From: a virus
Strand: one strand, 5' to 3'
Length of the DNA stretch: 41,733 nt
IMG/VR virus record: IMGVR_UViG_3300046011_008865
Location: 1 to 41,733 of that record
This document shows positions 3,211-22,205 of the stretch, piece after piece (within the stretch, counting starts at the first letter, position 1; each line of letters starts with the position of its first letter). The position numbers were made by a program, and so were the translations under genes. Under the pieces are notes generated by a model that ran no database searches, was not told the DNA's origin, and saw only the letters and a list, made by a program, of their open reading frames with translations.

Positions 3211-3825
3211 TTATCTTAAATTTGGTTTTTGTTGATTTTTCTCTTGGGCAAAATTATAAATTGCTTGTTGAGTTTGGGATGGAATAAACTTTGAAAGAAT
3301 AACAATTGCTTCACCATTTGGTAATCTAATATCGCGATACACCGTTCCAAAATTTTTTGCAAAACTATCTGCCATTCTACCATAAAGTTTCATTCGTGAC
3401 GAAATATTATCAATTGCAACAAATAGAATAGCATCTATATCGTACTGAATTAATTTTTCAGATAAAGCATTCTGAATTGTTCCAATAACTTGATTTTTAT
3501 GATTTGTCGACGTAAGTTGAGTTGTAGGTTTTCCATCAATGATTACTTCAAAACTTGCGTTAACACAATCATATTGTTTTTTGTCAAACTCATAAGAAAA
3601 AGGTTCAAATTTTATCAAGTAATCATATTCAGGACTTGAGAATTTTCCTAATAAACCATTCTCATCAGAATGAACCCACTCAATTGGAAAAGGTGCTTCA
3701 TTCAATTGCCAACTGGTAAATATAGGAGGATAAACGTAATTTTCTTTTAGACCTTCATAATGTCTAGTAAGTCCAAATCGTGAAACGTCTTGAAGTTCTA
3801 TTGGACGAACATCTCTAAGTTTCAT
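3211..3825 (-). CDS. Hypothetical protein between nrdA and nrdB
   Basis: A 204-residue soluble protein that I do not recognise. It begins MKLRDVRPIELQDV, is rich in aromatic residues in its first half (YVYPPIF, YDYLIKFEPF), and has a predicted alpha/beta second half ending in a polar Gln/Lys tail. Its ATG overlaps the nrdA C-part stop as ATGA, so it is probably translationally coupled to that gene, and nrdB follows 8 bases after its stop. The position suggests co-expression with ribonucleotide reductase, but T4 has no obvious counterpart there and I see no catalytic motif. Confidence 0.7.
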   Translation of the reverse strand: MKLRDVRPIELQDVSRFGLTRHYEGLKENYVYPPIFTSWQLNEAPFPIEWVHSDENGLLGKFSSPEYDYLIKFEPFSYEFDKKQYDCVNASFEVIIDGKPTTQLTSTNHKNQVIGTIQNALSEKLIQYDIDAILFVAIDNISSRMKLYGRMADSFAKNFGTVYRDIRLPNGEAIVILSKFIPSQTQQAIYNFAQEKNQQKPNLR

Positions 3826-4847
3826 ATTTTACAAGCCCCACCAGCACATCCATCGTCTTCTATATCATCACTTGCACCATCATTGACTTGGTTATAGTAT
3901 AGAGTTTTGATACCTTGCTTATAGGCAAATATCAAATCTTCTATTAGTCGAGACATTTTGATTTCGCCCCTAGACGGGTCATACGAAGTATTAGCACTAA
4001 TTGCCTGGTCAACATACTTTTGGAATACTCCAACAGTTTTCAAATAATCTCTACATTGAACATTCCAAAGAGTTTCATATGCATGATTGAGCTTGGTAAA
4101 TTCAGGAACAACTTGTGGTGGAACTCCATCTTTAGAACCTTTGATTGTGATCAAGTTTCGTGGTGGTTCAATTCCGTTAGTTTCATTTGCTAATTGAGAT
4201 GAAGTTTCTGATGGCATAAGAGCCATCAATGTTGCATTACGAATGCCATAAGTTTTTGCATCAACTCTAAGTTTTTCCCAATCTTTAGTTGGTTCATTGA
4301 CTGGAATTTTGCACATATCGCGTGGGAAGATACCGTCATGGTATTTAGTTCTTGCTTCAATCGGTCCGAATTCTTTTGCAAGTTCTATTGAAGCTTCCGT
4401 TAGATAGTAAGCTTGTTTTTCCATCAAAGTTTCAGTATTCAGTAATGCTTCATCAGAACCCCAAGTCAAACGTCCTTTAGCTAACCAATGAGCATAACCT
4501 ATGATGCCAATTCCAAGCGGGCGATAAAGTTTGGTTGCTCGTTCTGCTGCATCGATTGGATAGTTTTGATAATCAAGCAATGCATCAAGTGCTCTAACTA
4601 GAATATGACAAGAATCTCGTAAAATCTTTTCTTGAGCTTCAGTAAGAACTTTAGAATACTTGCCCCAGTTATTTGCAGCTAAAGTGCAAAGAGAAAGTAG
4701 AGAATCGATATATCCGAGAGGTTTAGATGGAAGTGCAATTTCTACACAATTATGAATAAGAATTTGATTAGCATAAAAATTATTATTGTCTTCAACTGTT
4801 ATATCATAAACTGGGATTTCTTCTTCAAGATATTCAATTTGTATCAT
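3822..4847 (-). CDS. nrdA: Ribonucleotide reductase large subunit, C-terminal half preceded by a split C-intein
   Basis: This 341-residue ORF begins with a 33-residue C-intein ending ILIHN, followed by C-extein CVEIALPSKPLGY. The first extein Cys corresponds to E. coli NrdA C439, the thiyl-radical cysteine, and CVE supplies the E441 equivalent. Further on, LCTLAANNW holds the C462 equivalent, and the C-terminus GCAGGACKI carries the redox-shuttle cysteine pair. The C-extein is 308 residues; joined to the 438-residue N-extein it makes 746, a normal NrdA length. The ATG overlaps the GIY-YIG stop as ATGA and has AGGA 9 bases upstream, so translation is probably coupled to the endonuclease gene. 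It is inactive unless trans-spliced (inference from the family). Confidence 0.95.
   Translation of the reverse strand: MIQIEYLEEEIPVYDITVEDNNNFYANQILIHNCVEIALPSKPLGYIDSLLSLCTLAANNWGKYSKVLTEAQEKILRDSCHILVRALDALLDYQNYPIDAAERATKLYRPLGIGIIGYAHWLAKGRLTWGSDEALLNTETLMEKQAYYLTEASIELAKEFGPIEARTKYHDGIFPRDMCKIPVNEPTKDWEKLRVDAKTYGIRNATLMALMPSETSSQLANETNGIEPPRNLITIKGSKDGVPPQVVPEFTKLNHAYETLWNVQCRDYLKTVGVFQKYVDQAISANTSYDPSRGEIKMSRLIEDLIFAYKQGIKTLYYNQVNDGASDDIEDDGCAGGACKI
4749..4847 (-). other. C-intein of the split NrdA intein
   Basis: This is a 33-residue C-intein. VYDITVEDNNNFYA matches intein block F and ILIHN followed by Cys matches block G: penultimate His, terminal Asn, +1 Cys. The extein begins with the TGT at 4748-4746. 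The partner N-intein is 0.8 kb upstream at 5948-5637, separated by its own stop codon and a GIY-YIG gene, so splicing must occur in trans. Confidence 0.93.
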
Positions 4848-5572
4848 TTTTGTTTTTCCTTTTTTACTTTTGTCATTGTGTTGGTATCAAAATCTTCTAG
4901 ATTGATAGTTCGTTTTTGGCCAGTTTCATTTATGATTACTTTTATTTTTCCAGTATTTGCATCTCGTAATTTTTGTTTCTGAATATCGTCTCTAAAAAAA
5001 CCATTATATTTCAATCCGGTGATACTTTCTACTTCTCGTGCTAAGTTTCTATATTTTCCACCAAATCTAAAAGAAGTAAAATGTTTGGGTATATGTTGCC
5101 CTTTAGATTTTGCAAATGCTGATAATCGCGTATGTCCTGGAATATAACCTTTTTCAAGAGTAAGCTCTAATAACAGCTGAATCATTTGCTCATTAGTAGT
5201 TTCACCTGCATTTGTATTATTCAATCCTTGAGATGCTACTTTTAGTTTTTCCAACCATGATTCTTTATCTGTTACTATCCAACCTCCACATCCACCTGGT
5301 TTAGCATTATATCCTGCTTTACCTATTAGATTTTCTTCAAGAATAATTTTAGCTTCAACTTCTCGAATTTTAGCCATATCATCATTTTCATAAACTACTT
5401 CCCTTTTCCAAGGGTCGGGTCCATACTTTCTAATTGCTGCATGAAATCGAAATTTGCTTCCGCTTCGCGCAGCGGATAAATGTCTATTCCATCTATGTTC
5501 TAAATCATAGATGGTTTGACCTACATAAGCTTTTCCATTGATAGTATTAGTTACTTTATACACAATTGCCAT
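4844..5572 (-). CDS. Free-standing GIY-YIG homing endonuclease between the nrdA halves
   Basis: This is a 242-residue protein. The N-terminal GIY-YIG nuclease domain is visible as IVYKVTNTINGKAYVGQT (VYK...YVG variant), an HRWNRHL arginine, a glutamate in the EAKIILEE helix and GYNAKPGG. A Lys/Arg-rich C-terminal half (residues about 105-242) should bind DNA. Such enzymes cut intein- or intron-free alleles near their own insertion site and spread the element. Its stop overlaps the nrdA C-part start (ATGA). The ATG sits in a 10-bp hairpin stem overlapping a late promoter. With the N-intein and C-intein on either side it forms a 'fractured gene'. Confidence 0.93.
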   Translation of the reverse strand: MAIVYKVTNTINGKAYVGQTIYDLEHRWNRHLSAARSGSKFRFHAAIRKYGPDPWKREVVYENDDMAKIREVEAKIILEENLIGKAGYNAKPGGCGGWIVTDKESWLEKLKVASQGLNNTNAGETTNEQMIQLLLELTLEKGYIPGHTRLSAFAKSKGQHIPKHFTSFRFGGKYRNLAREVESITGLKYNGFFRDDIQKQKLRDANTGKIKVIINETGQKRTINLEDFDTNTMTKVKKEKQK

Positions 5573-5621
5573 TTTTATAATTCCATAAGTAATATGATTT
5601 CAGTATTATTTATGGCAATTG
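5563..5621 (-). promoter_or_regulatory. Hairpin masking the GIY-YIG start codon, with embedded late promoter CATAAATA
   Basis: Bases 5612-5621 and 5563-5572 form a perfect 10-bp inverted repeat (CAATTGCCAT/ATGGCAATTG on the minus strand). The 3' arm contains the ATG of the GIY-YIG gene. A T4-late-like box CATAAATA (5614-5607) overlaps the end of the 5' arm, so RNA started there (about 5601) lacks that arm and leaves the ATG free. Read-through RNA from nrdA would be masked. T4 I-TevI uses this logic; here it is inferred from sequence only. Confidence 0.65.
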
Positions 5622-5633
5622 AGATTATATTAC

Positions 5634-7262
5634 CTACTCTATAACCAATTCATCATCCGGTAAAAGATTTTTAGCCTCAACATATCCACGATTTTTAGTA
5701 TAAACTTGGTGTTCTGGGGTGCATACTAATGATTTTCCAGTTTCAGTATCTGTCAAACGAAGAACTTTAGCTTTAGGACTTGTTTGCGCAAAAGCCTGTA
5801 TGGTTTTGAATTCGCTAATACCTTTCTTATTATTACGAGACCAAACTTTCAATGGCTCATTACCAAAAGTTGATAATTGGTCAATTCTAATATCTTCAAT
5901 TGAACCATCAGCCCGTTGAATAGTAATTGTAGTATCACCTGATACACATAAGTTTGTCATTACTATTGGTTCATAAAACGGTGTATGACTATTGACATTG
6001 TCTGCATTGAAGATATAGATGCGGGAAGTTTCAAATCTTTCATTCATTACTTTAGCAAAGTATTCATCAGCAGGAATACTTATCTTGTTCACTTTATTTG
6101 ACTGTTCATATTTTGTGTACAGAGCTTCAAAGTGAACAGTGTCTGAACTATAGAATGCATCATATAAATCAGGCACTTCATCAGGTGAAAATAAAGTAAT
6201 GTTTCCGCCAGTAACCAATCGTTTATACATTGTACCATGCAATCCAATTGCATAATCCATTGTACGAACACGAGTTTCTTCAGTACCTTTATTGTTTTTG
6301 AGTTCTATTAGACGTTCGAACTCTAAGTGCCATCCTGGATAGTTTGCAGTTCCTGATGCTCCACGAACTGCACCTTGAGAACAACATTTCAAATCAGCAT
6401 TTAGCTTTTTCAAAAATGGAATAACACCTGTTGTAATTGCATCACCGTTTCTAACAGGTTGTCCTTCAGCTCGTAATCGACCAATGTTCAATCCAATACC
6501 AGCTTTTTGAGATGCATAATCTACAATAGCATTACCTGTTGCTTTGATAGAATGTAAGCTATCTCCACAATCAATGATAGTACAAGAAGAGAACTGTTTG
6601 ACATTAGTTCTTAAACCTGCCATGATTGGAGTTGGCAATGAAAAGTAATGTTGGGAAGCTAAATCATAAAACTTTTCAATATACTTCAATCGTGTTTCTT
6701 TTGGATACTTGCCAAATAGAATAGCCGGAACAAGAATATATGGAAACTGAAAAGATTCATATATTTGTTTTGTTTTTCTATTTTGAACAAGATATTTCTT
6801 TCTCATTTGTTCAGCACCGGCATATCTGAACAAATCATCTCTATCATGGTCAATAAAGCTATTCAAAATATCAAATTCTTCAGGAGTATAGAGGTCTAAT
6901 AGTTCTGACGTATAAACTCCAGCAGCTACATTCTTTTTGACTACTTCATATAAATGAGGTGGATTATTAGAACCAAAAGCTTCTTTGCGAACTGCTAACC
7001 AAACTAATCGTGCTGCTACATGGTCGTAATTCGGCGTATCTTCAGAAATCAAATCAGCCGAAGCTTTGATAATCATTTCATGAATTGCTTTCGTTTTGAT
7101 TTTAGAGAAAAAGTGTGGGTTTGCTGTCATCTCTATTTGTGAAACTGAAACCCCTTTTACTGGCGGGAACCCATTGTCCCCATGCACTGCCCATTCAATA
7201 ACTGCATGCAACTTTGATAAATCTAGTGGTTCAGTGTGTCCATTTCTTTTAGTGACTAACAT
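5634..7262 (-). CDS. nrdA: Ribonucleotide reductase large subunit, N-terminal half fused to a split N-intein
   Basis: This 542-residue ORF has an N-terminal ATP-cone (about residues 1-90, allosteric control) and the first part of the catalytic barrel. C227 in QFSSCTIIDC corresponds to E. coli C225, one of the redox cysteines. The extein stops at ...VMTNL (residue 438); the next 104 residues are an N-intein, then a TAA. The downstream half carries the matching C-intein. Splicing would restore NL-CVE around the radical cysteine, which becomes residue 439, as in E. coli. The start is the ATG at 7262. It is not a pseudogene: both halves are intact and both intein parts keep their key residues. 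Confidence 0.95.
   Translation of the reverse strand: MLVTKRNGHTEPLDLSKLHAVIEWAVHGDNGFPPVKGVSVSQIEMTANPHFFSKIKTKAIHEMIIKASADLISEDTPNYDHVAARLVWLAVRKEAFGSNNPPHLYEVVKKNVAAGVYTSELLDLYTPEEFDILNSFIDHDRDDLFRYAGAEQMRKKYLVQNRKTKQIYESFQFPYILVPAILFGKYPKETRLKYIEKFYDLASQHYFSLPTPIMAGLRTNVKQFSSCTIIDCGDSLHSIKATGNAIVDYASQKAGIGLNIGRLRAEGQPVRNGDAITTGVIPFLKKLNADLKCCSQGAVRGASGTANYPGWHLEFERLIELKNNKGTEETRVRTMDYAIGLHGTMYKRLVTGGNITLFSPDEVPDLYDAFYSSDTVHFEALYTKYEQSNKVNKISIPADEYFAKVMNERFETSRIYIFNADNVNSHTPFYEPIVMTNLCVSGDTTITIQRADGSIEDIRIDQLSTFGNEPLKVWSRNNKKGISEFKTIQAFAQTSPKAKVLRLTDTETGKSLVCTPEHQVYTKNRGYVEAKNLLPDDELVIE
5637..5948 (-). other. N-intein of the split NrdA intein
   Basis: This is a 104-residue N-intein. It starts with the nucleophile Cys in CVSGDTTITI (block A) and has the block B signature CTPEHQVYT (TxxH) followed by GYVEAKNLLPDDE. 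It ends at a stop codon, with no endonuclease domain inside the chain. Block B and the tail closely resemble the UvsW N-intein (HEFYTKTRGKVKAKDL), so the two are probably related. Confidence 0.93.
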
Positions 7263-7294
7263 GGAATAGAGTATCTCCGTATATTATTTGATTG

Positions 7295-7876
7295 TTATGC
7301 TATGAATTGTTCTACTCGTTCAACACGAGCTAACCAACCTTCAAGAAAGACAGCTTGAGATGGTTTTCGTTCAACAATTGATTTGAAAAAGCGTTTGCGT
7401 ATTTTGTTTTGTTTTCTTGCTAAATCGAATGGATTGTTTGAATTGATAACTGCGAGTGTGTTTGGACCAATCACTCCATCAATTGAAACATCTAAACTTT
7501 CTTGGAGCATTTTTGCTGCTCGACCGACACCATGATTAACTGCTGCATCGAAATGAACTTCAGCAAGTGGTGATTGAAATTTATCGCACTTTGCTGGAAG
7601 CCAGTATTTTTTGAAGTAGATAACTCTTGCTTCATGTAAAGTCATCTTTTTGATATTGACTTCTGGATTAGCATTTGCTGCTATCCCAAACTTAGTTTCT
7701 CCACCTGGGTCAGCTGGATGATTGACATATCCAGTCTTTCTTTTTTGAGATTTTGTTTCGCACAAACCTGCAATAACTTCAGGGTCATTTGGGTCATACC
7801 AAGACCCAATCTCCTGCTTCATTGTAAAGTTGAATGCTCTTTCAAATTCTTCTGAAAATTGTTCTTCGACGCCCAC
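7295..7876 (-). CDS. Endolysin, GH108 muramidase with peptidoglycan-binding tail
   Basis: A 193-residue lysozyme. The signature is a catalytic Glu (E22 in KQEIG) followed by YVNHPADPGGETKFGIA, typical of glycoside hydrolase family 108, and later VHFDAAVNHGVGRA and a PG_binding_3-like segment (QESLDVSIDGVIGPNT). It cleaves the glycan backbone of peptidoglycan at lysis. There is no signal peptide, so it should need a holin. The start is GTG at 7876 with AGGAG 8 bases upstream; the next ATG would delete part of the first helix. A hairpin masks the ribosome site and a late-type box lies just upstream, so expression is probably late. Confidence 0.9.
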   Translation of the reverse strand: MGVEEQFSEEFERAFNFTMKQEIGSWYDPNDPEVIAGLCETKSQKRKTGYVNHPADPGGETKFGIAANANPEVNIKKMTLHEARVIYFKKYWLPAKCDKFQSPLAEVHFDAAVNHGVGRAAKMLQESLDVSIDGVIGPNTLAVINSNNPFDLARKQNKIRKRFFKSIVERKPSQAVFLEGWLARVERVEQFIA

Positions 7877-7883
7877 GTGATAT

Positions 7884-7917
7884 ACTCCTGTTGTTTATTC
7901 TAACAGAAGTATTTATC
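7884..7917 (-). promoter_or_regulatory. Late promoter GATAAATA plus hairpin sequestering the endolysin ribosome site
   Basis: On the minus strand ACTTCTGTT (7910-7902) pairs with AACAGGAGT (7892-7884): nine pairs, one of them U-G, with a 9-base loop. The 3' arm holds the AGGAG ribosome site. GATAAATA (7917-7910) should start RNA near 7904, removing most of the 5' arm. Early read-through RNA would be masked and late RNA open, as in T4 gene e. Confidence 0.6.
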
Positions 7918-7926
7918 ATCATAGGA

Positions 7927-8436
7927 TTAGATGAGATCACCATATAACATATTGTCTAAATGTTTATATAGGTCATGTGGTCCAACCACTACATTCATAA
8001 TAGTCGTGGTTCCATCATCTAATGTCAAGTCACCAACAGGATGACATAGCGCAGTTCCTTTCTGTAACATAGGATGAGTAACCGCCATGTTAGGATGAAC
8101 ATCTTTTACTTGAATTGGTAATGTTCTAAACTTAGAATCATTTGGTGTCATAATCAACGGATATGCTTCAACAGTAATACAATCAGCAAGTGGCATACAA
8201 TCTAACTTCTGAGTATCAACATCTGATACCATAATATACCAATTATATGGCAAGCTAAAAACTAACCCATTTACTTCAACACTAATCAAGGTTCCGGAAG
8301 TTTCTTCTAAGTAATGAAGCGGGTGTAAAGTAAAGTCAAGTAATGATGAAGAAAAAGCCCAAAAGAACTTTGGAACTATTGGGGCATTTGATGTTTCAAT
8401 CAAATATGGTTTTGAGTATTCAGTAAGTATTAGCAT
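7927..8436 (-). CDS. Hypothetical protein between uvsW and endolysin
   Basis: A 169-residue protein without signal peptide or membrane segment. It appears beta-rich, with many hydrophobic and aromatic stretches (FFWAFSSSLLDF, LPYNWYIMVSD) and two Cys-containing motifs (LDCMPLADC, GTALCHPVGD). The LPYNWYIMVSD...LDCMPLADC pattern looks like a conserved single-domain fold, but I cannot name a family. It starts at the ATG 8436, 7 bases after the uvsW C-part stop, with no clear Shine-Dalgarno site. It could be co-transcribed with either uvsW or the endolysin gene. Confidence 0.65.
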   Translation of the reverse strand: MLILTEYSKPYLIETSNAPIVPKFFWAFSSSLLDFTLHPLHYLEETSGTLISVEVNGLVFSLPYNWYIMVSDVDTQKLDCMPLADCITVEAYPLIMTPNDSKFRTLPIQVKDVHPNMAVTHPMLQKGTALCHPVGDLTLDDGTTTIMNVVVGPHDLYKHLDNMLYGDLI

Positions 8437-8443
8437 ATAGTTA

Positions 8444-9298
8444 TTATGATATTTTGATTTTGATTGAGTTAGTTATCGGATATTGAGATTCTTTATACCA
8501 TTTTACACGCTCGCGTGCATGCGCTTTAGACCACTTAAGGTCGGCAAAAATATCAATTACTTTTACCATTTTCTTATCTGATGCCAAACGAGTTCCACGA
8601 CCAACAGATTGAATTGCTTTGATATACGACTTCCCTGCATCTACGAAAATCAAACACTTAACTCGGTCAATACTAATGCCAGTTGAAGCAATACCGGATG
8701 TTGCAACAACAATCATATCATCCTGAGTTTCAAACAAATCGTATTGAGCTTTTCTTTCTTTCTTTTTAGAAGCACCATATAAGAAGACTGCATTACCGCT
8801 AATTGCTTGTGTTAAGTTTTCTCCAAACGGAACAGAATTGACAAGAACTAAAGTATTACCGATTTGCTCTGCATATTGGATAATCAAGCCAGCAATAACT
8901 TCTATTCGTTCTTCATTCTTAGAAAGATAGTTCTTTTCAGCTGCATAGTCAGGGAACTGTTCTTTACTTGATTGTTTCAAACAGACTTGTTCAATATCTA
9001 CTTCAGCAAGATAGCCATTATCAATCAACCAACGTGCAGGGATTTCAATAAGAGTATCTCCTATTGAAGCACGAAGAGACATTTGGTCAGCGGGAGGTTT
9101 TGGGAATGTGCCTGTTACACCAAACTTGAATGGTATATGAGCACCATGTTCGTTCAGTAACTTTTGAGCTACATGAGCTTTAGCACCATGGCAATTTGCA
9201 ACTACAGCTCCATGTACAATATAATTATGATTATTTTTAACATGTAAATTATAAACTATTTCCGGTTTGTCTATTTCTATCTTTGATAGTAGTTTCAT
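8444..9298 (-). CDS. uvsW: UvsW-type helicase, C-terminal half preceded by a split C-intein
   Basis: This 284-residue ORF starts with a 35-residue C-intein ending VVAN, then the C-extein CHGAKAHVAQK, i.e. the second half of the DExH box. The rest is the second RecA-like lobe: GVTGTFPK (motif III region), VATSGIASTGIS (motif V) and QSVGRGTR (motif VI). UvsW unwinds branched recombination intermediates and R-loops and helps convert origin to recombination-dependent replication. Joined to the N-half it gives 478 residues, close to T4 UvsW. The ATG at 9298 lies 50 bases inside the endonuclease gene, in another frame, and has no visible ribosome site. Confidence 0.92.
   Translation of the reverse strand: MKLLSKIEIDKPEIVYNLHVKNNHNYIVHGAVVANCHGAKAHVAQKLLNEHGAHIPFKFGVTGTFPKPPADQMSLRASIGDTLIEIPARWLIDNGYLAEVDIEQVCLKQSSKEQFPDYAAEKNYLSKNEERIEVIAGLIIQYAEQIGNTLVLVNSVPFGENLTQAISGNAVFLYGASKKKERKAQYDLFETQDDMIVVATSGIASTGISIDRVKCLIFVDAGKSYIKAIQSVGRGTRLASDKKMVKVIDIFADLKWSKAHARERVKWYKESQYPITNSIKIKIS
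9194..9298 (-). other. C-intein of the split UvsW intein, non-canonical penultimate residue
   Basis: This is a 35-residue C-intein. Block F is visible as IVYNLHVKNNHNYIVHG and block G as VVAN before Cys (TGC at 9193-9191). The penultimate residue is Ala instead of the usual His; the terminal Asn and +1 Cys are kept. Its first 50 bases also encode the C-terminus of the homing endonuclease in another frame. Confidence 0.9.
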
Positions 9299-10226
9299 AA
9301 AATTTTTTTATTTTTAATAAAGTAACATTATCAATTTCATTATGAGGCAAATCGTCATATGAAATTAAATTTATTAATTCATGTTCAGTTATAATTTCAA
9401 ATTTATAATTATTGTCTTTTGCCCATTTTATACCTTCATTTATTTTAAAATTATCCTTTTTTATATTTTTGGAAGGTTTGATTTCAAAAATAGTTAAAGT
9501 GTCTTTATTGAAAAAATCAGTAATATAAATTTTTAATTTACCGGTTTCAGAAATATAAGGTATTCTTATTTTTTCATATTCATATCCAGTAGCCGCATAA
9601 AAAATAACTTCCCAGGAAGACCTAAACTTTATATTTCTGAATTCTATATTTTTCCTAGTTCTACTATTATGCGGATTTGGAGTCCATTCTCCATTCTGGA
9701 TTTTTTGTTTCATTTCATATGATTTTGCCTTTTTCCATTCATCAGAATGGGTCCTTCCATACATAGGATTTTTTTCGCTAAGTCTTTCGTTAGAAATTTT
9801 TTCTAAACGGATATCAGTTTCTTTTGATAAACCTTTATTCCATGGAACAACATCAGATGATTTGCCTTTATTCCAAGGAATTTCTCCTTTTTTGTCGAAA
9901 CATCTATTTGAACTTTTGGCTGTAGCATTTCCTCCAATTTTTGCAATCAAATGTTTTCGCAATTTTTCAGCTTCAATTCTGAGCATTTCATCTTTACTTA
10001 AATACTGTTGAATAATTAATTCTGGATATAACAAAAATAATTTTGTTTTAAATTTTGTAAATAACTTTAAATTTAATTTAATTCCATTTGAAAATAATGC
10101 TACATCAAAAAATTTTCGACCACTTCCAATTCTGTTTTTGTACAATAAATCAATTAAAATTACATCGCAATTTAGCTCTTTCAGCTTTAAATTAATTTTT
10201 TCAATTATTTTGTTTTTATATGACAT
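9249..10226 (-). CDS. Free-standing PD-(D/E)XK homing endonuclease with NUMOD3-like repeats, between the uvsW halves
   Basis: A 325-residue protein. The middle has repeated IPWNKGKS / VPWNKGLS motifs and NPMYGRTHSDEWKKAKS, typical of NUMOD3-type DNA-binding modules of homing enzymes. Then comes a nuclease core of the RSxWE...DF...ExK type: R202-SSW-E206, D237 (YITDFF), E248-I-K250. It should cut intein-free uvsW alleles. The gene is strikingly AT-rich compared with its neighbours, suggesting a separate origin. Its last 16 codons overlap the UvsW C-intein. TATAAATA, a perfect late promoter, lies 29 bases before the ATG, overlapping the N-intein stop codon. Confidence 0.87.
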   Translation of the reverse strand: MSYKNKIIEKINLKLKELNCDVILIDLLYKNRIGSGRKFFDVALFSNGIKLNLKLFTKFKTKLFLLYPELIIQQYLSKDEMLRIEAEKLRKHLIAKIGGNATAKSSNRCFDKKGEIPWNKGKSSDVVPWNKGLSKETDIRLEKISNERLSEKNPMYGRTHSDEWKKAKSYEMKQKIQNGEWTPNPHNSRTRKNIEFRNIKFRSSWEVIFYAATGYEYEKIRIPYISETGKLKIYITDFFNKDTLTIFEIKPSKNIKKDNFKINEGIKWAKDNNYKFEIITEHELINLISYDDLPHNEIDNVTLLKIKKFYETTIKDRNRQTGNSL

Positions 10227-10254
10227 TAGTTTTGCTTCAATGAAACTCAGAAAG

Positions 10255-10262
10255 TATTTATA
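10255..10262 (-). promoter_or_regulatory. T4-type late promoter TATAAATA for the uvsW homing endonuclease
   Basis: A perfect TATAAATA on the minus strand, overlapping the N-intein TAA. Its start site would be near 10249, in front of the endonuclease ATG (10226). An upstream ATGAAA (10280-10275) can pair with TTTCAT (10245-10240), weakly suggesting a read-through hairpin like the one at the GIY-YIG gene. Confidence 0.6.
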
Positions 10263-11238
10263 AAAATTCTATAATTTCATCCTCAAAAGTTAAATCTTTC
10301 GCTTTAACTTTTCCACGAGTTTTAGTATAAAACTCGTGATTTTCTGTAACTTCAATTAAAATTCCATTATCAAATTTCAATTGAAGCATTTTTGAATTTG
10401 AGCTCTTTAATAAATTTTTATGAACTTTTACAATTTCATCTTCTATAAATGTTCCGTCTTTATTCATTGAATAAACAATATCTCCAATTTTTAATTGGGA
10501 TATTTCAATGTCGCCATTGGGAGTTTTTACTTTCTGTGAACCTGAAAAACATTCATCCCAGATTAGAGCTTGGAAATTATCAAGTAGTCTTGGTTGATAT
10601 TGTAATGCTTGCCAGGTAGCGACTACGTTTAAGTGGTCAATATCTTTATTGTCGCCAGAGTATACTCCAGTGTCCATACCAACACCACGATAGAATTCGA
10701 CAGTCTGGTCAACTAAGTCAGATGATGGTACTATTGTAACACAATTATACCCAGCAGATGAAAATGCATGAGAAATTCCTGCGGTCATCAACGTTTTACC
10801 AGCACCTGTGCCTGCAATAATAAACCCACAGCCATGTTCAATACAAAGATTGATTGATTGAGCTTGATATGGTCGAAGATAAACATTAGGTATTAAGTTC
10901 GATTCTTCTTCTTCATTGATTTCTTCATCAGTTATTAAGAATACTTCTTCGTTTATCAAAGGTGGTAAATCATAATAACTTCGCTTATCAACTAAGTCAA
11001 TTTGATATTGCCATTTTTCTATAAGAGGAATGATTTGAGTTAAGAGCTTAACATATGTCTTTCCAGTCTTTTCAAAAAACCTAACTCGTCCATCCCATCT
11101 TCCCATGACAAATAATGGCATATGTCTATACCCATCAACATATGGGCCAAATAATTCCCAGAGCATATCAACATGAAATTTGTCTAATCCTTGGATTGAA
11201 CACCATACTTCATTTTGAATTGTGATTTTTACAATCAT
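10258..11238 (-). CDS. uvsW: UvsW-type helicase, N-terminal half fused to a split N-intein
   Basis: This 326-residue ORF starts at the ATG 11238, overlapping the uvsY stop as ATGA; longer readings would need a TTG start inside uvsY. The N-terminal domain has DGYRHMPLFVMGRWDGRVRF, matching the T4 UvsW start (DGYR...GNWDGR), then a Q-motif-like LRPYQ, Walker A AGTGAGKT (142-149) and the first half of motif II, LIWDE (229). The next 97 residues are an N-intein ending at a TAA. The helicase cannot be functional without the other half, because the DECH motif is divided between two polypeptides. Confidence 0.93.
   Translation of the reverse strand: MIVKITIQNEVWCSIQGLDKFHVDMLWELFGPYVDGYRHMPLFVMGRWDGRVRFFEKTGKTYVKLLTQIIPLIEKWQYQIDLVDKRSYYDLPPLINEEVFLITDEEINEEEESNLIPNVYLRPYQAQSINLCIEHGCGFIIAGTGAGKTLMTAGISHAFSSAGYNCVTIVPSSDLVDQTVEFYRGVGMDTGVYSGDNKDIDHLNVVATWQALQYQPRLLDNFQALIWDECFSGSQKVKTPNGDIEISQLKIGDIVYSMNKDGTFIEDEIVKVHKNLLKSSNSKMLQLKFDNGILIEVTENHEFYTKTRGKVKAKDLTFEDEIIEFL
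10261..10551 (-). other. N-intein of the split UvsW intein
   Basis: This is a 97-residue N-intein. It starts with Cys in CFSGSQKVKTPNG (block A) directly after LIWDE, and has block B VTENHEFYT (TxxH) followed by KVKAKDLTFEDE. It ends at a stop with no internal endonuclease. The partner C-intein begins 1 kb downstream. Confidence 0.93.
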
Positions 11239-11693
11239 AATACGTATTCTTCTAGTGAAGCGACTGCCATTTTTGTAATGTGTCCCATTTGCCAATTCAT
11301 AGTATCAAGAGCATCAATAATTCCATTGATGCTATTACGGAGGTGAGTGATTTCTAATATAAGTTCAGACATTTCTACAAATTCAGGGTCGCCTTTGATA
11401 TACTGTTTTATATCAGTTTGAGATAGCTGACGAGAATACCCCTCATTATAAGCTTTATGTCTAACTCCTTCTATTTTATCACGTCGGATTGATAATAGTT
11501 CTTCAATACTCTTTAGTTCAGCTGCATATATTTTGAATTCTGCAAGTTTCTTTGGAATATTTCTGCAAACTTCAACTAACTTCCTACCTTCTAATGTAAA
11601 GAATGGTTTTACTTCTTCAATTCTTGTTTCATATCTATCAATGTATTCAAGAACTAAATGTACATTATCCGCAATAGGAGATAGGAAAGTCAT
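11235..11693 (-). CDS. uvsY: UvsY-like recombination mediator
   Basis: A 152-residue, mostly helical, charged protein between uvsX and uvsW. Its C-terminal part (ELILEITHLRNSINGIIDALDTMNWQMGHITKM) resembles the end of T4 UvsY, and the length is near T4's 137. UvsY loads UvsX onto gp32-coated ssDNA. Its ATG follows the uvsX stop by 2 bases and its stop overlaps the uvsW ATG. The match is distant by eye; the gene order (uvsX-uvsY-uvsW) carries much of the weight. Confidence 0.75.
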   Translation of the reverse strand: MTFLSPIADNVHLVLEYIDRYETRIEEVKPFFTLEGRKLVEVCRNIPKKLAEFKIYAAELKSIEELLSIRRDKIEGVRHKAYNEGYSRQLSQTDIKQYIKGDPEFVEMSELILEITHLRNSINGIIDALDTMNWQMGHITKMAVASLEEYVL

Positions 11694-20297: not shown

Positions 20298-22205
20298 TTA
20301 CGCGTTTATAAATGATACGAAAAAATTTGTAAAGTTTCCCTTTTTTAAAAAATCTTCATAATTCTTCTTAGTGTCAAACAATACAAATACCCTGCCCTTT
20401 TTGGAGTTTAATAACGAAACTAATATATTATAATTTTCGCCGTGAATAATATCATCGTCAGAAACAATAAGTATATTGTAATTTTTTTCTAGTAATTTCT
20501 TAAGATCTTCTAATATTTCGTCAGTGAAATTAGTAGCACCACCAGGATGATCTTTAAAAACTGCACTTAATTTAGAATCCCATTTAGATGGTTTATCTAA
20601 AATGTTAATTACATGCGCTGCTTTATCACCGTTGAATAAAATTTTATGTTTAGTATGATCATTACTAAACTTTATCAATGTCATTTCACAATTACGCAAA
20701 CCATCATTAGTAGCTAATAAATTATAAATGTTTGAATATATCTTTTGAACCGAACTTGTCATTGAACCAGAATTATCAATACAAAAACAAATCTTTGCTT
20801 CTATTAAATCTAATGGTATTTCACTTGGTGGTAATGCGCCAGCTCCAAGTTGAGCTGCTACGTGTAATCCTGAAATACCTCTTCGTGATGGTTTTAATCG
20901 AGATTCCTCAACTTTGTCAGAATTACTAGGAAGAAGTAATCTTAACAATGATCGCCAATCATGTTTCGGAGCAACTTTGGTATAATCCATTTCGGTAGAA
21001 GTACCCTTATTTGAACCTCTTCCACCTTTTTTCGCGTCATTTGCTTGCTTTGCACGTTCTTCATCACGTTTTCGCAAATCGTCAGCCGCTTCTTTAGTAT
21101 CTTTATCCTTAGCATCCTTCATCTGTCCTTCAGTTTTTTCATTCTGTTTATCAATTTTATCCCATGGATTTCCACTACCTCCAGTGCCTTCACCTTCCCC
21201 CTCTCCTTCCTGGCCCTCTCCTTCTCCTTTGCCTTTTTGACCTCCCTCTCCTCCTTCATCCATTTCTTTACCTTTTTCTTGACCGGGTTGGTGATCATCA
21301 CCCATTTCATCTAAAGCTTTTTTCAATCGTTGTTGCTGTTCATTATTTAGTTTTTTGAATTCACTTTCAACAAGGTCATACATTTCTTTATATGAGCTTT
21401 GTCTATCATAATTGATTTTATCGTTGAATAGTCCCATCGGAAGTTGTTCATATCCTGATTTGACTAACAAATAATTAGTTCTAAAATCTCCAACCCAATT
21501 GATTATATCTGGATCAGCATTAGGAATAATCTTTTGATAATGAAAATCATCATAAGTATAGTGCATAAATTCATGAATGATTGCAAATTCACAATAGCAA
21601 TATTCATCTGGAAAATTACCGCCATTACATTGATACTTTTTGCCTTTTGGCTTAACTTGCTTTAAGTGAGCTAATTCCATTAACCTTTGACAAAAAACAG
21701 CATTAAATGCAAATATGCCATTAGGAGTAGCACATGCAGTAGGTATATCTGCAAACTCCGGATAATCCGGATTATCAGTAAAGATAGTTGCTGCATCATA
21801 TAAACGTTTATGATTTAAGAATGAGCGGAGCGGATAAAACTGCTCATGGTCGGCTTTTACGCGCGTTACTAATTGTTGAAAAATATTTCTGTTGAACTTT
21901 GGACAAGTTGGCGAAGATATACTATGTTCTTCCATCAACTTAAAAGATTCATCTTCAATAATGTTTTTTAGAATAGTTCCATATAAGATGGGGGCTTTAG
22001 CAGCAATATCAGAAAAACTTGCAAGTTTTTTATTAAAATCATCTTCAATTTCTTTAACAGAACGATTTGTAATTCTAGCAGTTTCTGCTAGAATTTTTTG
22101 TATGTGCGGGTCTGTAAGTTTAGACTCGCTAAACTTAACCGTTCCTTCCTTCCACTTTCTTACTTCAAATCCTTCAATAATAAGTCGTTGATATTTAGTT
22201 TGCAT
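20298..22205 (-). CDS. Metallopeptidase-like / VWA-like two-domain protein (DUF2201 type)
   Basis: A 635-residue protein. The N-terminal zincin-like domain has IIHEFMHYTYDDF (HExxH at 211-215) and a downstream acidic INWVGDFRTNYLL segment that may supply the third ligand. A linker (about 300-410) is full of Gly/Glu and Lys/Asp repeats (GEGEGQEGEGEGEG). The C-terminal domain starts at about 468 and carries a MIDAS-type motif DNSGS (D477, S479, S481). This order matches bacterial putative metallopeptidase-VWA proteins of the DUF2201 group, which often accompany AAA+ chaperones. The opening MQTKYQRLIIE-G also resembles a capsid-targeting leader. Role in the phage is unknown. Confidence 0.75.
   Translation of the reverse strand: MQTKYQRLIIEGFEVRKWKEGTVKFSESKLTDPHIQKILAETARITNRSVKEIEDDFNKKLASFSDIAAKAPILYGTILKNIIEDESFKLMEEHSISSPTCPKFNRNIFQQLVTRVKADHEQFYPLRSFLNHKRLYDAATIFTDNPDYPEFADIPTACATPNGIFAFNAVFCQRLMELAHLKQVKPKGKKYQCNGGNFPDEYCYCEFAIIHEFMHYTYDDFHYQKIIPNADPDIINWVGDFRTNYLLVKSGYEQLPMGLFNDKINYDRQSSYKEMYDLVESEFKKLNNEQQQRLKKALDEMGDDHQPGQEKGKEMDEGGEGGQKGKGEGEGQEGEGEGEGTGGSGNPWDKIDKQNEKTEGQMKDAKDKDTKEAADDLRKRDEERAKQANDAKKGGRGSNKGTSTEMDYTKVAPKHDWRSLLRLLLPSNSDKVEESRLKPSRRGISGLHVAAQLGAGALPPSEIPLDLIEAKICFCIDNSGSMTSSVQKIYSNIYNLLATNDGLRNCEMTLIKFSNDHTKHKILFNGDKAAHVINILDKPSKWDSKLSAVFKDHPGGATNFTDEILEDLKKLLEKNYNILIVSDDDIIHGENYNILVSLLNSKKGRVFVLFDTKKNYEDFLKKGNFTNFFVSFINA

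What the first reader, a model, noticed from the sequence alone, without database searches (positions are those of the whole stretch)
3822..7262. Split intein in NrdA placed exactly before the catalytic radical cysteine, with a GIY-YIG gene between
Seen: extein ends VMTNL and restarts CVEIALP. The first C-extein residue, needed as the splicing nucleophile, is also the equivalent of E. coli NrdA C439, and the N-half is 438 residues long, so it keeps the same number. The reductase stays catalytically dead until spliced. The endonuclease class differs from the one in uvsW, so two unrelated nucleases accompany similar inteins in one genome.
Basis: partly seen in the sequence, partly recalled or inferred. 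Interest (0 to 1): 0.85.

Follow-up and report, generated by a model that had tools for sequence, protein, structure and literature searches.

The report
Split intein at NrdA's radical cysteine
In this phage the gene for the DNA-building-block enzyme ribonucleotide reductase is cut in two exactly at its catalytic cysteine by a split self-splicing intein, with a homing-endonuclease gene in the break; this is a well-supported example of a known arrangement, and its many relatives show the break being carried along, losing its nuclease and apparently being re-joined.

Summary
Confirmed. On the minus strand, 7262-5634 encodes 438 residues of NrdA plus a 104-aa N-intein. A 242-aa GIY-YIG endonuclease (5572-4844) follows, then a 33-aa C-intein plus 308 residues of NrdA (4847-3822). 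The junction aligns exactly at E. coli L438|C439, so the C-extein nucleophile becomes the radical cysteine. All splicing residues and all NrdA catalytic residues looked for are present. Trans-splicing itself is inferred. The arrangement is the known "fractured gene" kind, also present in cultured Yersinia, Klebsiella and Campylobacter phages: a new member of a known kind.

A survey adds: 104 non-redundant relatives at this site, in two registers one codon apart (NL|C439, 89; NLC439|C440, 15). About half carry the same GIY-YIG family between split halves. 17 are split with the nuclease lost or reduced; 7 are contiguous mini-inteins scattered among split ones, so re-fusion is likely. Most nuclease leaders carry a T4-type late promoter and a stem hiding the start codon, as for I-TevI; in the window this is weaker. 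The uvsW split intein (29% identical N-half, unrelated TnsA-like nuclease) is absent from close relatives that share the NrdA one. "Dead until spliced" is plausible but untested.

The parts
5949..7262 (-). NrdA N-extein, 438 residues, ends VMTNL (= E. coli L438)
5637..5948 (-). N-intein, 104 aa, starts C1 (CVSGDT), block B T77-x-x-H80; stop codon 5634-5636
5612..5621 (-). 5' arm CAATTGCCAT of a 10-bp perfect stem that covers the nuclease start codon
   Evidence: p about 0.01 against shuffled leader
5607..5614 (-). CATAAATA, 7 of 8 match to the T4 late promoter box TATAAATA, between the arms (overlaps the last bases of the 5' arm); not significant alone
5563..5572 (-). 3' arm ATGGCAATTG, contains the GIY-YIG start codon
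4844..5572 (-). GIY-YIG homing endonuclease gene, 242 aa: I-TevI-like catalytic domain (about 1-90), C-terminal helical DNA-binding-type module (about 118-215); stop overlaps the ATG of the next gene (ATGA)
4749..4847 (-). C-intein, 33 aa, ends ILIHN; own Shine-Dalgarno AAGGA upstream
3822..4748 (-). NrdA C-extein, 308 residues, starts C (= E. coli C439, +1 nucleophile and radical cysteine), stop included
10258..11295 (-). context: UvsW N-half plus N-intein, extein ends LIWDE
10255..10262 (-). context: perfect TATAAATA in front of the uvsW nuclease gene
9249..10226 (-). context: nuclease of the uvsW split intein, NUMOD3 plus TnsA-like PD-(D/E)XK domain, G+C 0.25
8444..9298 (-). context: UvsW C-intein plus C-half, extein starts CHG (DE|CH motif II)

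Best explanation
A mobile 'fractured gene' cassette. NrdA is made as two chains; the N-intein (104 aa) and C-intein (33 aa) associate, fold as one Hint domain and splice in trans, joining L438 to C439 so that the splicing nucleophile becomes the radical cysteine of a normal 746-aa class Ia NrdA. The free-standing GIY-YIG nuclease between the halves is a homing endonuclease that would cut intein-free nrdA near the conserved NLCxE codons and so spread the whole cassette. The nuclease leader probably keeps its translation off in early read-through RNA (a stem hides the start codon) and on in RNA started at a late promoter inside or beside the stem, while the C-half has its own ribosome-binding site and can be made at any time. 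Shown here: anatomy, junction, conservation, purifying selection, family-wide co-occurrence, patchy presence. Inferred: splicing, cutting site, timing.
For: Junction and catalytic residues. Hint fold: a contiguous relative (L152) is predicted at pLDDT 89.6 and matches the NrdJ-1 split intein best (E 1.4e-12). Nuclease: pLDDT 83, best match I-TevI catalytic domain (E 1.3e-5); R27 and E73 invariant in 25 relatives. dN/dS window vs L004: IN 0.12, IC 0.07, nuclease 0.13 (catalytic) and 0.29 (rest); dS near 1 or above in nearly every part (IC, 33 codons, 0.73), so the parts were inherited together. Of 104 non-redundant relatives at this site 54 have the same GIY-YIG family between split halves. Empty sites exist in the nearest intein-free exteins (L006 75%, L007/L008 68%). 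Leaders: 35 of 42 have a perfect TATAAATA (about 2 expected) and 34 of 42 a stem over the start region at p 0.05 or less against a shuffled 5' part; in one clade the 17-pair stem is 96.6% paired against 41-48% when slid. The same control is described for I-TevI, segB and Aeh1 mobE (PMC2988022).
Against: No splicing, cleavage or transcript data. The window's own late box is 7 of 8 and its leader does not fold better than shuffles overall (z -0.2). One compensatory pair change only in the stem alignment. Leaders are related, so 42 are not 42 independent tests. The nuclease's DNA-binding module resembles a generic repeat of homing endonucleases, so its target is not proven.
Confidence: 0.87

Rival explanations
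1. A broken intein remnant: the halves no longer splice and NrdA works as two non-covalent chains, as in phage Aeh1.
For: Aeh1 split NrdA is active without splicing (PMC2988022). Pfam intein scores of both halves are below the curated cut-off.
Against: All splicing residues are intact (C1, TxxH, HN, +1 C). IN and IC are under purifying selection (dN/dS 0.12 and 0.07). About a hundred relatives keep both halves even where the nuclease is gone, which a dead intein would not explain.
Confidence: 0.05
2. The GIY-YIG gene is a chance neighbour inserted next to an already split intein and does not move the cassette.
For: The DNA-binding module is generic (HNH_repeat-like). Some split loci have HNH nucleases, other ORFs or none.
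Against: The same GIY-YIG family lies at the same place in 54 of 104 relatives, and the nuclease state is clustered on the intein tree (33 changes against 43.9 shuffled, 0 of 200 as low). HNH nucleases at the same site in L003, L163 and L141 share the C-terminal module (E 8e-10, 8.5e-6, 1.3e-4; best of 900 shuffles 0.085), though TG1's HNH does not.
Confidence: 0.08
3. The gap is a group I intron with an ORF and the intein resemblance is secondary.
For: Phage nrd genes often carry group I introns (PMC3653736).
Against: No Rfam match in the window. Both halves end and start with intein blocks at the exact splice residues.
Confidence: 0.01

Closest known systems
Fractured genes with split inteins (Dassa et al. 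2009, NAR, doi 10.1093/nar/gkp095; text not held here, cited through PMC3653736 and PMC7090010)
   Same: Conserved enzyme gene broken by a split intein with a free-standing endonuclease gene between; 7 nrdA and 2 nrdJ cases from ocean metagenomes are quoted in PMC3653736.
   Different: Which nuclease and which nrdA codon those cases use could not be read here; this one is GIY-YIG at L438|C439.
NrdA of Yersinia phage vB_YenM_TG1 (KP202158)
   Same: Split at the same codon (NL|C) with IN, IC and a nuclease gene between; annotated as two NrdA fragments and an HNH homing endonuclease.
   Different: HNH nuclease instead of GIY-YIG; its module is not recognised by the GIY module profile.
NrdA of Klebsiella phage KP13-7 (OP617745)
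   Same: IN, GIY-YIG gene and IC at the same place.
   Different: One codon further on (NLC|C); nrdA is broken twice more, once by a second split intein with its own nuclease-like ORF.
NrdJ-1 split intein (PDB 8ubs)
   Same: Closest solved intein by sequence (E 6e-10) and by fold (E 1.4e-12).
   Different: Class II reductase.
Aeromonas phage Aeh1 nrdA / mobE
   Same: nrdA split by a homing endonuclease gene with hairpin and late-promoter control (PMC2988022).
   Different: No intein; the chains work without ligation.
I-TevI
   Same: GIY-YIG catalytic fold (E 1.3e-5); translation control by hairpin and late promoter.
   Different: Intron-encoded.

Membership tests
Split intein (class 1, Hint) | Cys at position 1, TxxH in block B, His-Asn at the end, Cys/Ser/Thr at +1 | tested here: met
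Split intein (class 1, Hint) | Two separate reading frames, N and C halves | tested here: met
   same in L004/L005
Split intein (class 1, Hint) | Hint fold | tested here: met
   On a contiguous relative used as proxy (L152); sequence match of the window IN to 8ubs
Split intein (class 1, Hint) | Trans-splicing activity | not testable with these tools
   needs expression of both halves
Fractured gene (Dassa 2009 kind) | Conserved enzyme gene broken by a split intein with a free-standing endonuclease gene between | tested here: met
   definition taken from memory and from PMC3653736
GIY-YIG homing endonuclease | GIY-YIG domain with catalytic Arg and Glu | tested here: met
   Pfam 40.7 bits; R27, E73 invariant; I-TevI fold
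GIY-YIG homing endonuclease | Cuts the intein-free allele and drives its own transfer | not testable with these tools
   only patchy presence seen
I-TevI-type timing control | Stem hiding the start region plus a late promoter placed so that late RNA lacks the 5' arm | tested here: inconclusive
   Strong in relatives; in the window a 10-bp stem (p about 0.01) and a 7/8 promoter box only
Class Ia NrdA | Catalytic cysteines, NLCxE, YY pair and C-terminal CxxxxC after splicing | tested here: met
Vsr-like homing endonucleases of Dassa 2009 | uvsW nuclease belongs to that family | not tested
   only Pfam TnsA-like and NUMOD3 matches seen

The most novel reading that the evidence does not exclude
The catalytic cysteine of ribonucleotide reductase is a hotspot where one family of split inteins has sat in two registers, directly before or directly after the cysteine, switching between them repeatedly, and where fracture is reversible: the nuclease is lost many times while the split stays, and split halves have been re-fused several times into contiguous mini-inteins. 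The direction (split to contiguous) rests on nesting in unrooted trees and on one direct nuclease-deletion case (L126 against L124), so it is not proven.
Probability: 0.5. Interest if true: 0.65.

Novelty: new member of a known kind. Interest (0 to 1): 0.45.

Why it matters
The site offers over a hundred natural variants of one element in every state: empty, split with nuclease, split with a nuclease remnant, split without nuclease, contiguous. That makes the open question of how split inteins arise and whether they can revert directly testable. The two registers also test how much splicing depends on the residue before the junction when that residue is the enzyme's own catalytic cysteine. For protein engineering it is a source of many naturally split inteins; none was tested here for activity.

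Tried and rejected
Group I intron in the gap: no Rfam match in the window or in L001, L004, L012 and L089. A viral scan with the GIY-YIG protein alone found nothing; the intein alignment worked. A scan of bacterial genomes with the intein gave only distant actinobacterial and archaeal matches at 29-52%, several over short stretches, none followed up. Sigma-70 promoter and terminator scan at chance level. TATAAATA in the whole window is at chance number (4 found, 4.6 expected), so only its position counts. The dN/dS figure for UvsX is an alignment fault and is not used. Open-versus-closed start codons (0.20 read-through, 0.60 late start) are biased by RNA length; the shuffled-leader test is relied on instead. 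The 103-row tree is poorly resolved; register changes are taken from the careful 52-row tree (3 changes, all forced by supported branches), where one of the three rests on a long branch (L001). The full text of Dassa 2009 and Carvajal-Vallejos 2012 is not held, so whether NL|C439 with GIY-YIG was already among their nrdA cases is unknown.

Full report
What is there. The window is a 41.7-kb virus record with, on the minus strand, UvsX- and single-strand-binding-like genes, a split uvsW, a lysozyme, a split nrdA, nrdB and a ClpX-like gene (my reading of the ORF for the last). NrdA N-half 7262-5634, GIY-YIG gene 5572-4844, NrdA C-half 4847-3822. The nuclease stop and the C-half start overlap as ATGA, and the C-half has its own AAGGA site.

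The junction. PHMMER alignments put the last N-extein residue on E. coli L438 and the first C-extein residue on C439, the residue established as the radical cysteine (its role from general knowledge). The numbering agrees only because four length differences cancel. After splicing every catalytic residue looked for is present. The N-intein has C1, T77/H80; the C-intein ends H32-N33 before Cys+1. The nearest solved intein is NrdJ-1.

Is it maintained? Two further contigs carry the same layout (L004, L005). Between window and L004, dS is about 1.0-1.5 in N-extein, IN, nuclease, C-extein and NrdB (0.73 in the 33-codon IC), and dN/dS is 0.03-0.29: the parts have travelled together and all are selected.

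Relatives. Scans with intein alignments gave, after removal of duplicates, 116 loci with both intein halves, 104 of them in class I NrdA-type genes at this site and 6 in class II-like reductases at the matching NPC motif. Cultured phages: Yersinia TG1 with an HNH gene between the halves, Campylobacter F379 with two other ORFs, Klebsiella KP13-7 with a GIY-YIG gene. Pseudoalteromonas PH357 and Vibrio YC have long contiguous inteins there; Vibrio YC's contains an HNH-type stretch (my reading).

Two registers. In 89 loci the intein lies before the catalytic cysteine (NL|C-x-E); in 15 after it (NLC|C-E), where residue 440 must be a cysteine. In intein-free nrdA loci 45 of 74 have Cys at 440, so such targets are common. 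On the careful tree of 52 the register needs three changes, all forced by supported branches; the window (before) groups with L004 (before), L088 (after) and L089 (before).

Nuclease loss and re-fusion. 54 loci have the GIY-YIG family between split halves, 25 another long insert or a weak match, 17 a short gap or remnant, 7 are contiguous mini-inteins (L003 counted apart). L126 is L124 with the nuclease deleted between two AATAGAA repeats, halves still separate. L009 and L094 keep only the C-terminal module of the nuclease. L152 is contiguous and sister to split L161 (100/95 support). The likeliest order is split, nuclease loss, re-fusion; the trees are not rooted, and L152's N-half may be a recombinant (identity to L161 is patchy).

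Timing control. In 42 leaders between N-half stop and nuclease start, 35 have a perfect TATAAATA and 34 a stem over the start region. In the largest clade the stem has 17 pairs, 96.6% of cells paired. Arms differ between clades while the design stays. This is what PMC2988022 describes for I-TevI, I-TevII, I-TevIII, segB and Aeh1 mobE. The window's leader has a 10-bp stem including the ATG and a 7/8 box; the uvsW nuclease leader has a perfect box at 10255-10262.

The uvsW intein. It interrupts DE|CH of helicase motif II. L004, L005, L088 and L089 share the NrdA split intein but have an uninterrupted uvsW, and the split uvsW was found only in near-identical contigs; the nuclease gene is low in G+C (0.25). 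So the two elements most likely came separately. 'Similar inteins' means about 29% identity.

Shared module. A profile of the GIY-YIG C-terminal module finds HNH nucleases at the same site in L003 (E 8e-10), L163 (8.5e-6) and L141 (1.3e-4); the best of 900 shuffles is 0.085, and the uvsW nuclease is not found. TG1's HNH is not found either. Swapping of the cutting domain on one DNA-binding module is possible but the module is generic.

Verdict. The arrangement is a known kind, so the novelty is in the size and variety of the family at this one codon, not in the window itself.

Noticed in passing
L001 (Klebsiella phage KP13-7, OP617745) 4992-10522: nrdA is in four pieces: a break near residue 297 with an HNH_3 ORF, the NLC|C split intein with GIY-YIG, and a second split intein (MPGE|C...HN|TSSQ) with a 323-aa ORF of HNH type by eye (no Pfam match) between. 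The middle piece would have to splice at both ends. The pieces and the inserts are annotated as NrdA fragments or hypothetical proteins.
   Followed up: partly
L012 6285-8288: nrdA with a contiguous mini-intein at the NLC site and a second, split intein (MPSE|C...HN|SSVC) with only about 34 bases and no nuclease between the halves.
   Followed up: partly
L089 3256-4593: A further split intein in nrdA after residue 302 (RGA|C...HN|SAT), apparently with a short N-part (about 40 aa) and a long C-part (about 140 aa), and an HNH-like ORF between; looks like an atypically split intein.
   Followed up: partly
L211, L224, L276, L281, L301, L307: Class II-like reductases with related split inteins at the NPC motif, again in both registers (NP|C and NPC|C), with 800-1080 bases between the halves that do not match the GIY-YIG profile.
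   Followed up: partly
window 8444-11295: Split uvsW intein at DE|CH with a TnsA-like plus NUMOD3 nuclease; site empty in L004, L005, L088, L089, where L004 already has the needed Cys (DECH).
   Followed up: partly
L185 (Campylobacter phage F379) 2187-5817: Split NrdA intein (NLC|C) with two ORFs between the halves that look like no nuclease to me.
   Followed up: no
window 20298-22205: 635-aa ORF with a PHROGs HNH endonuclease match (E 8e-18).
   Followed up: no
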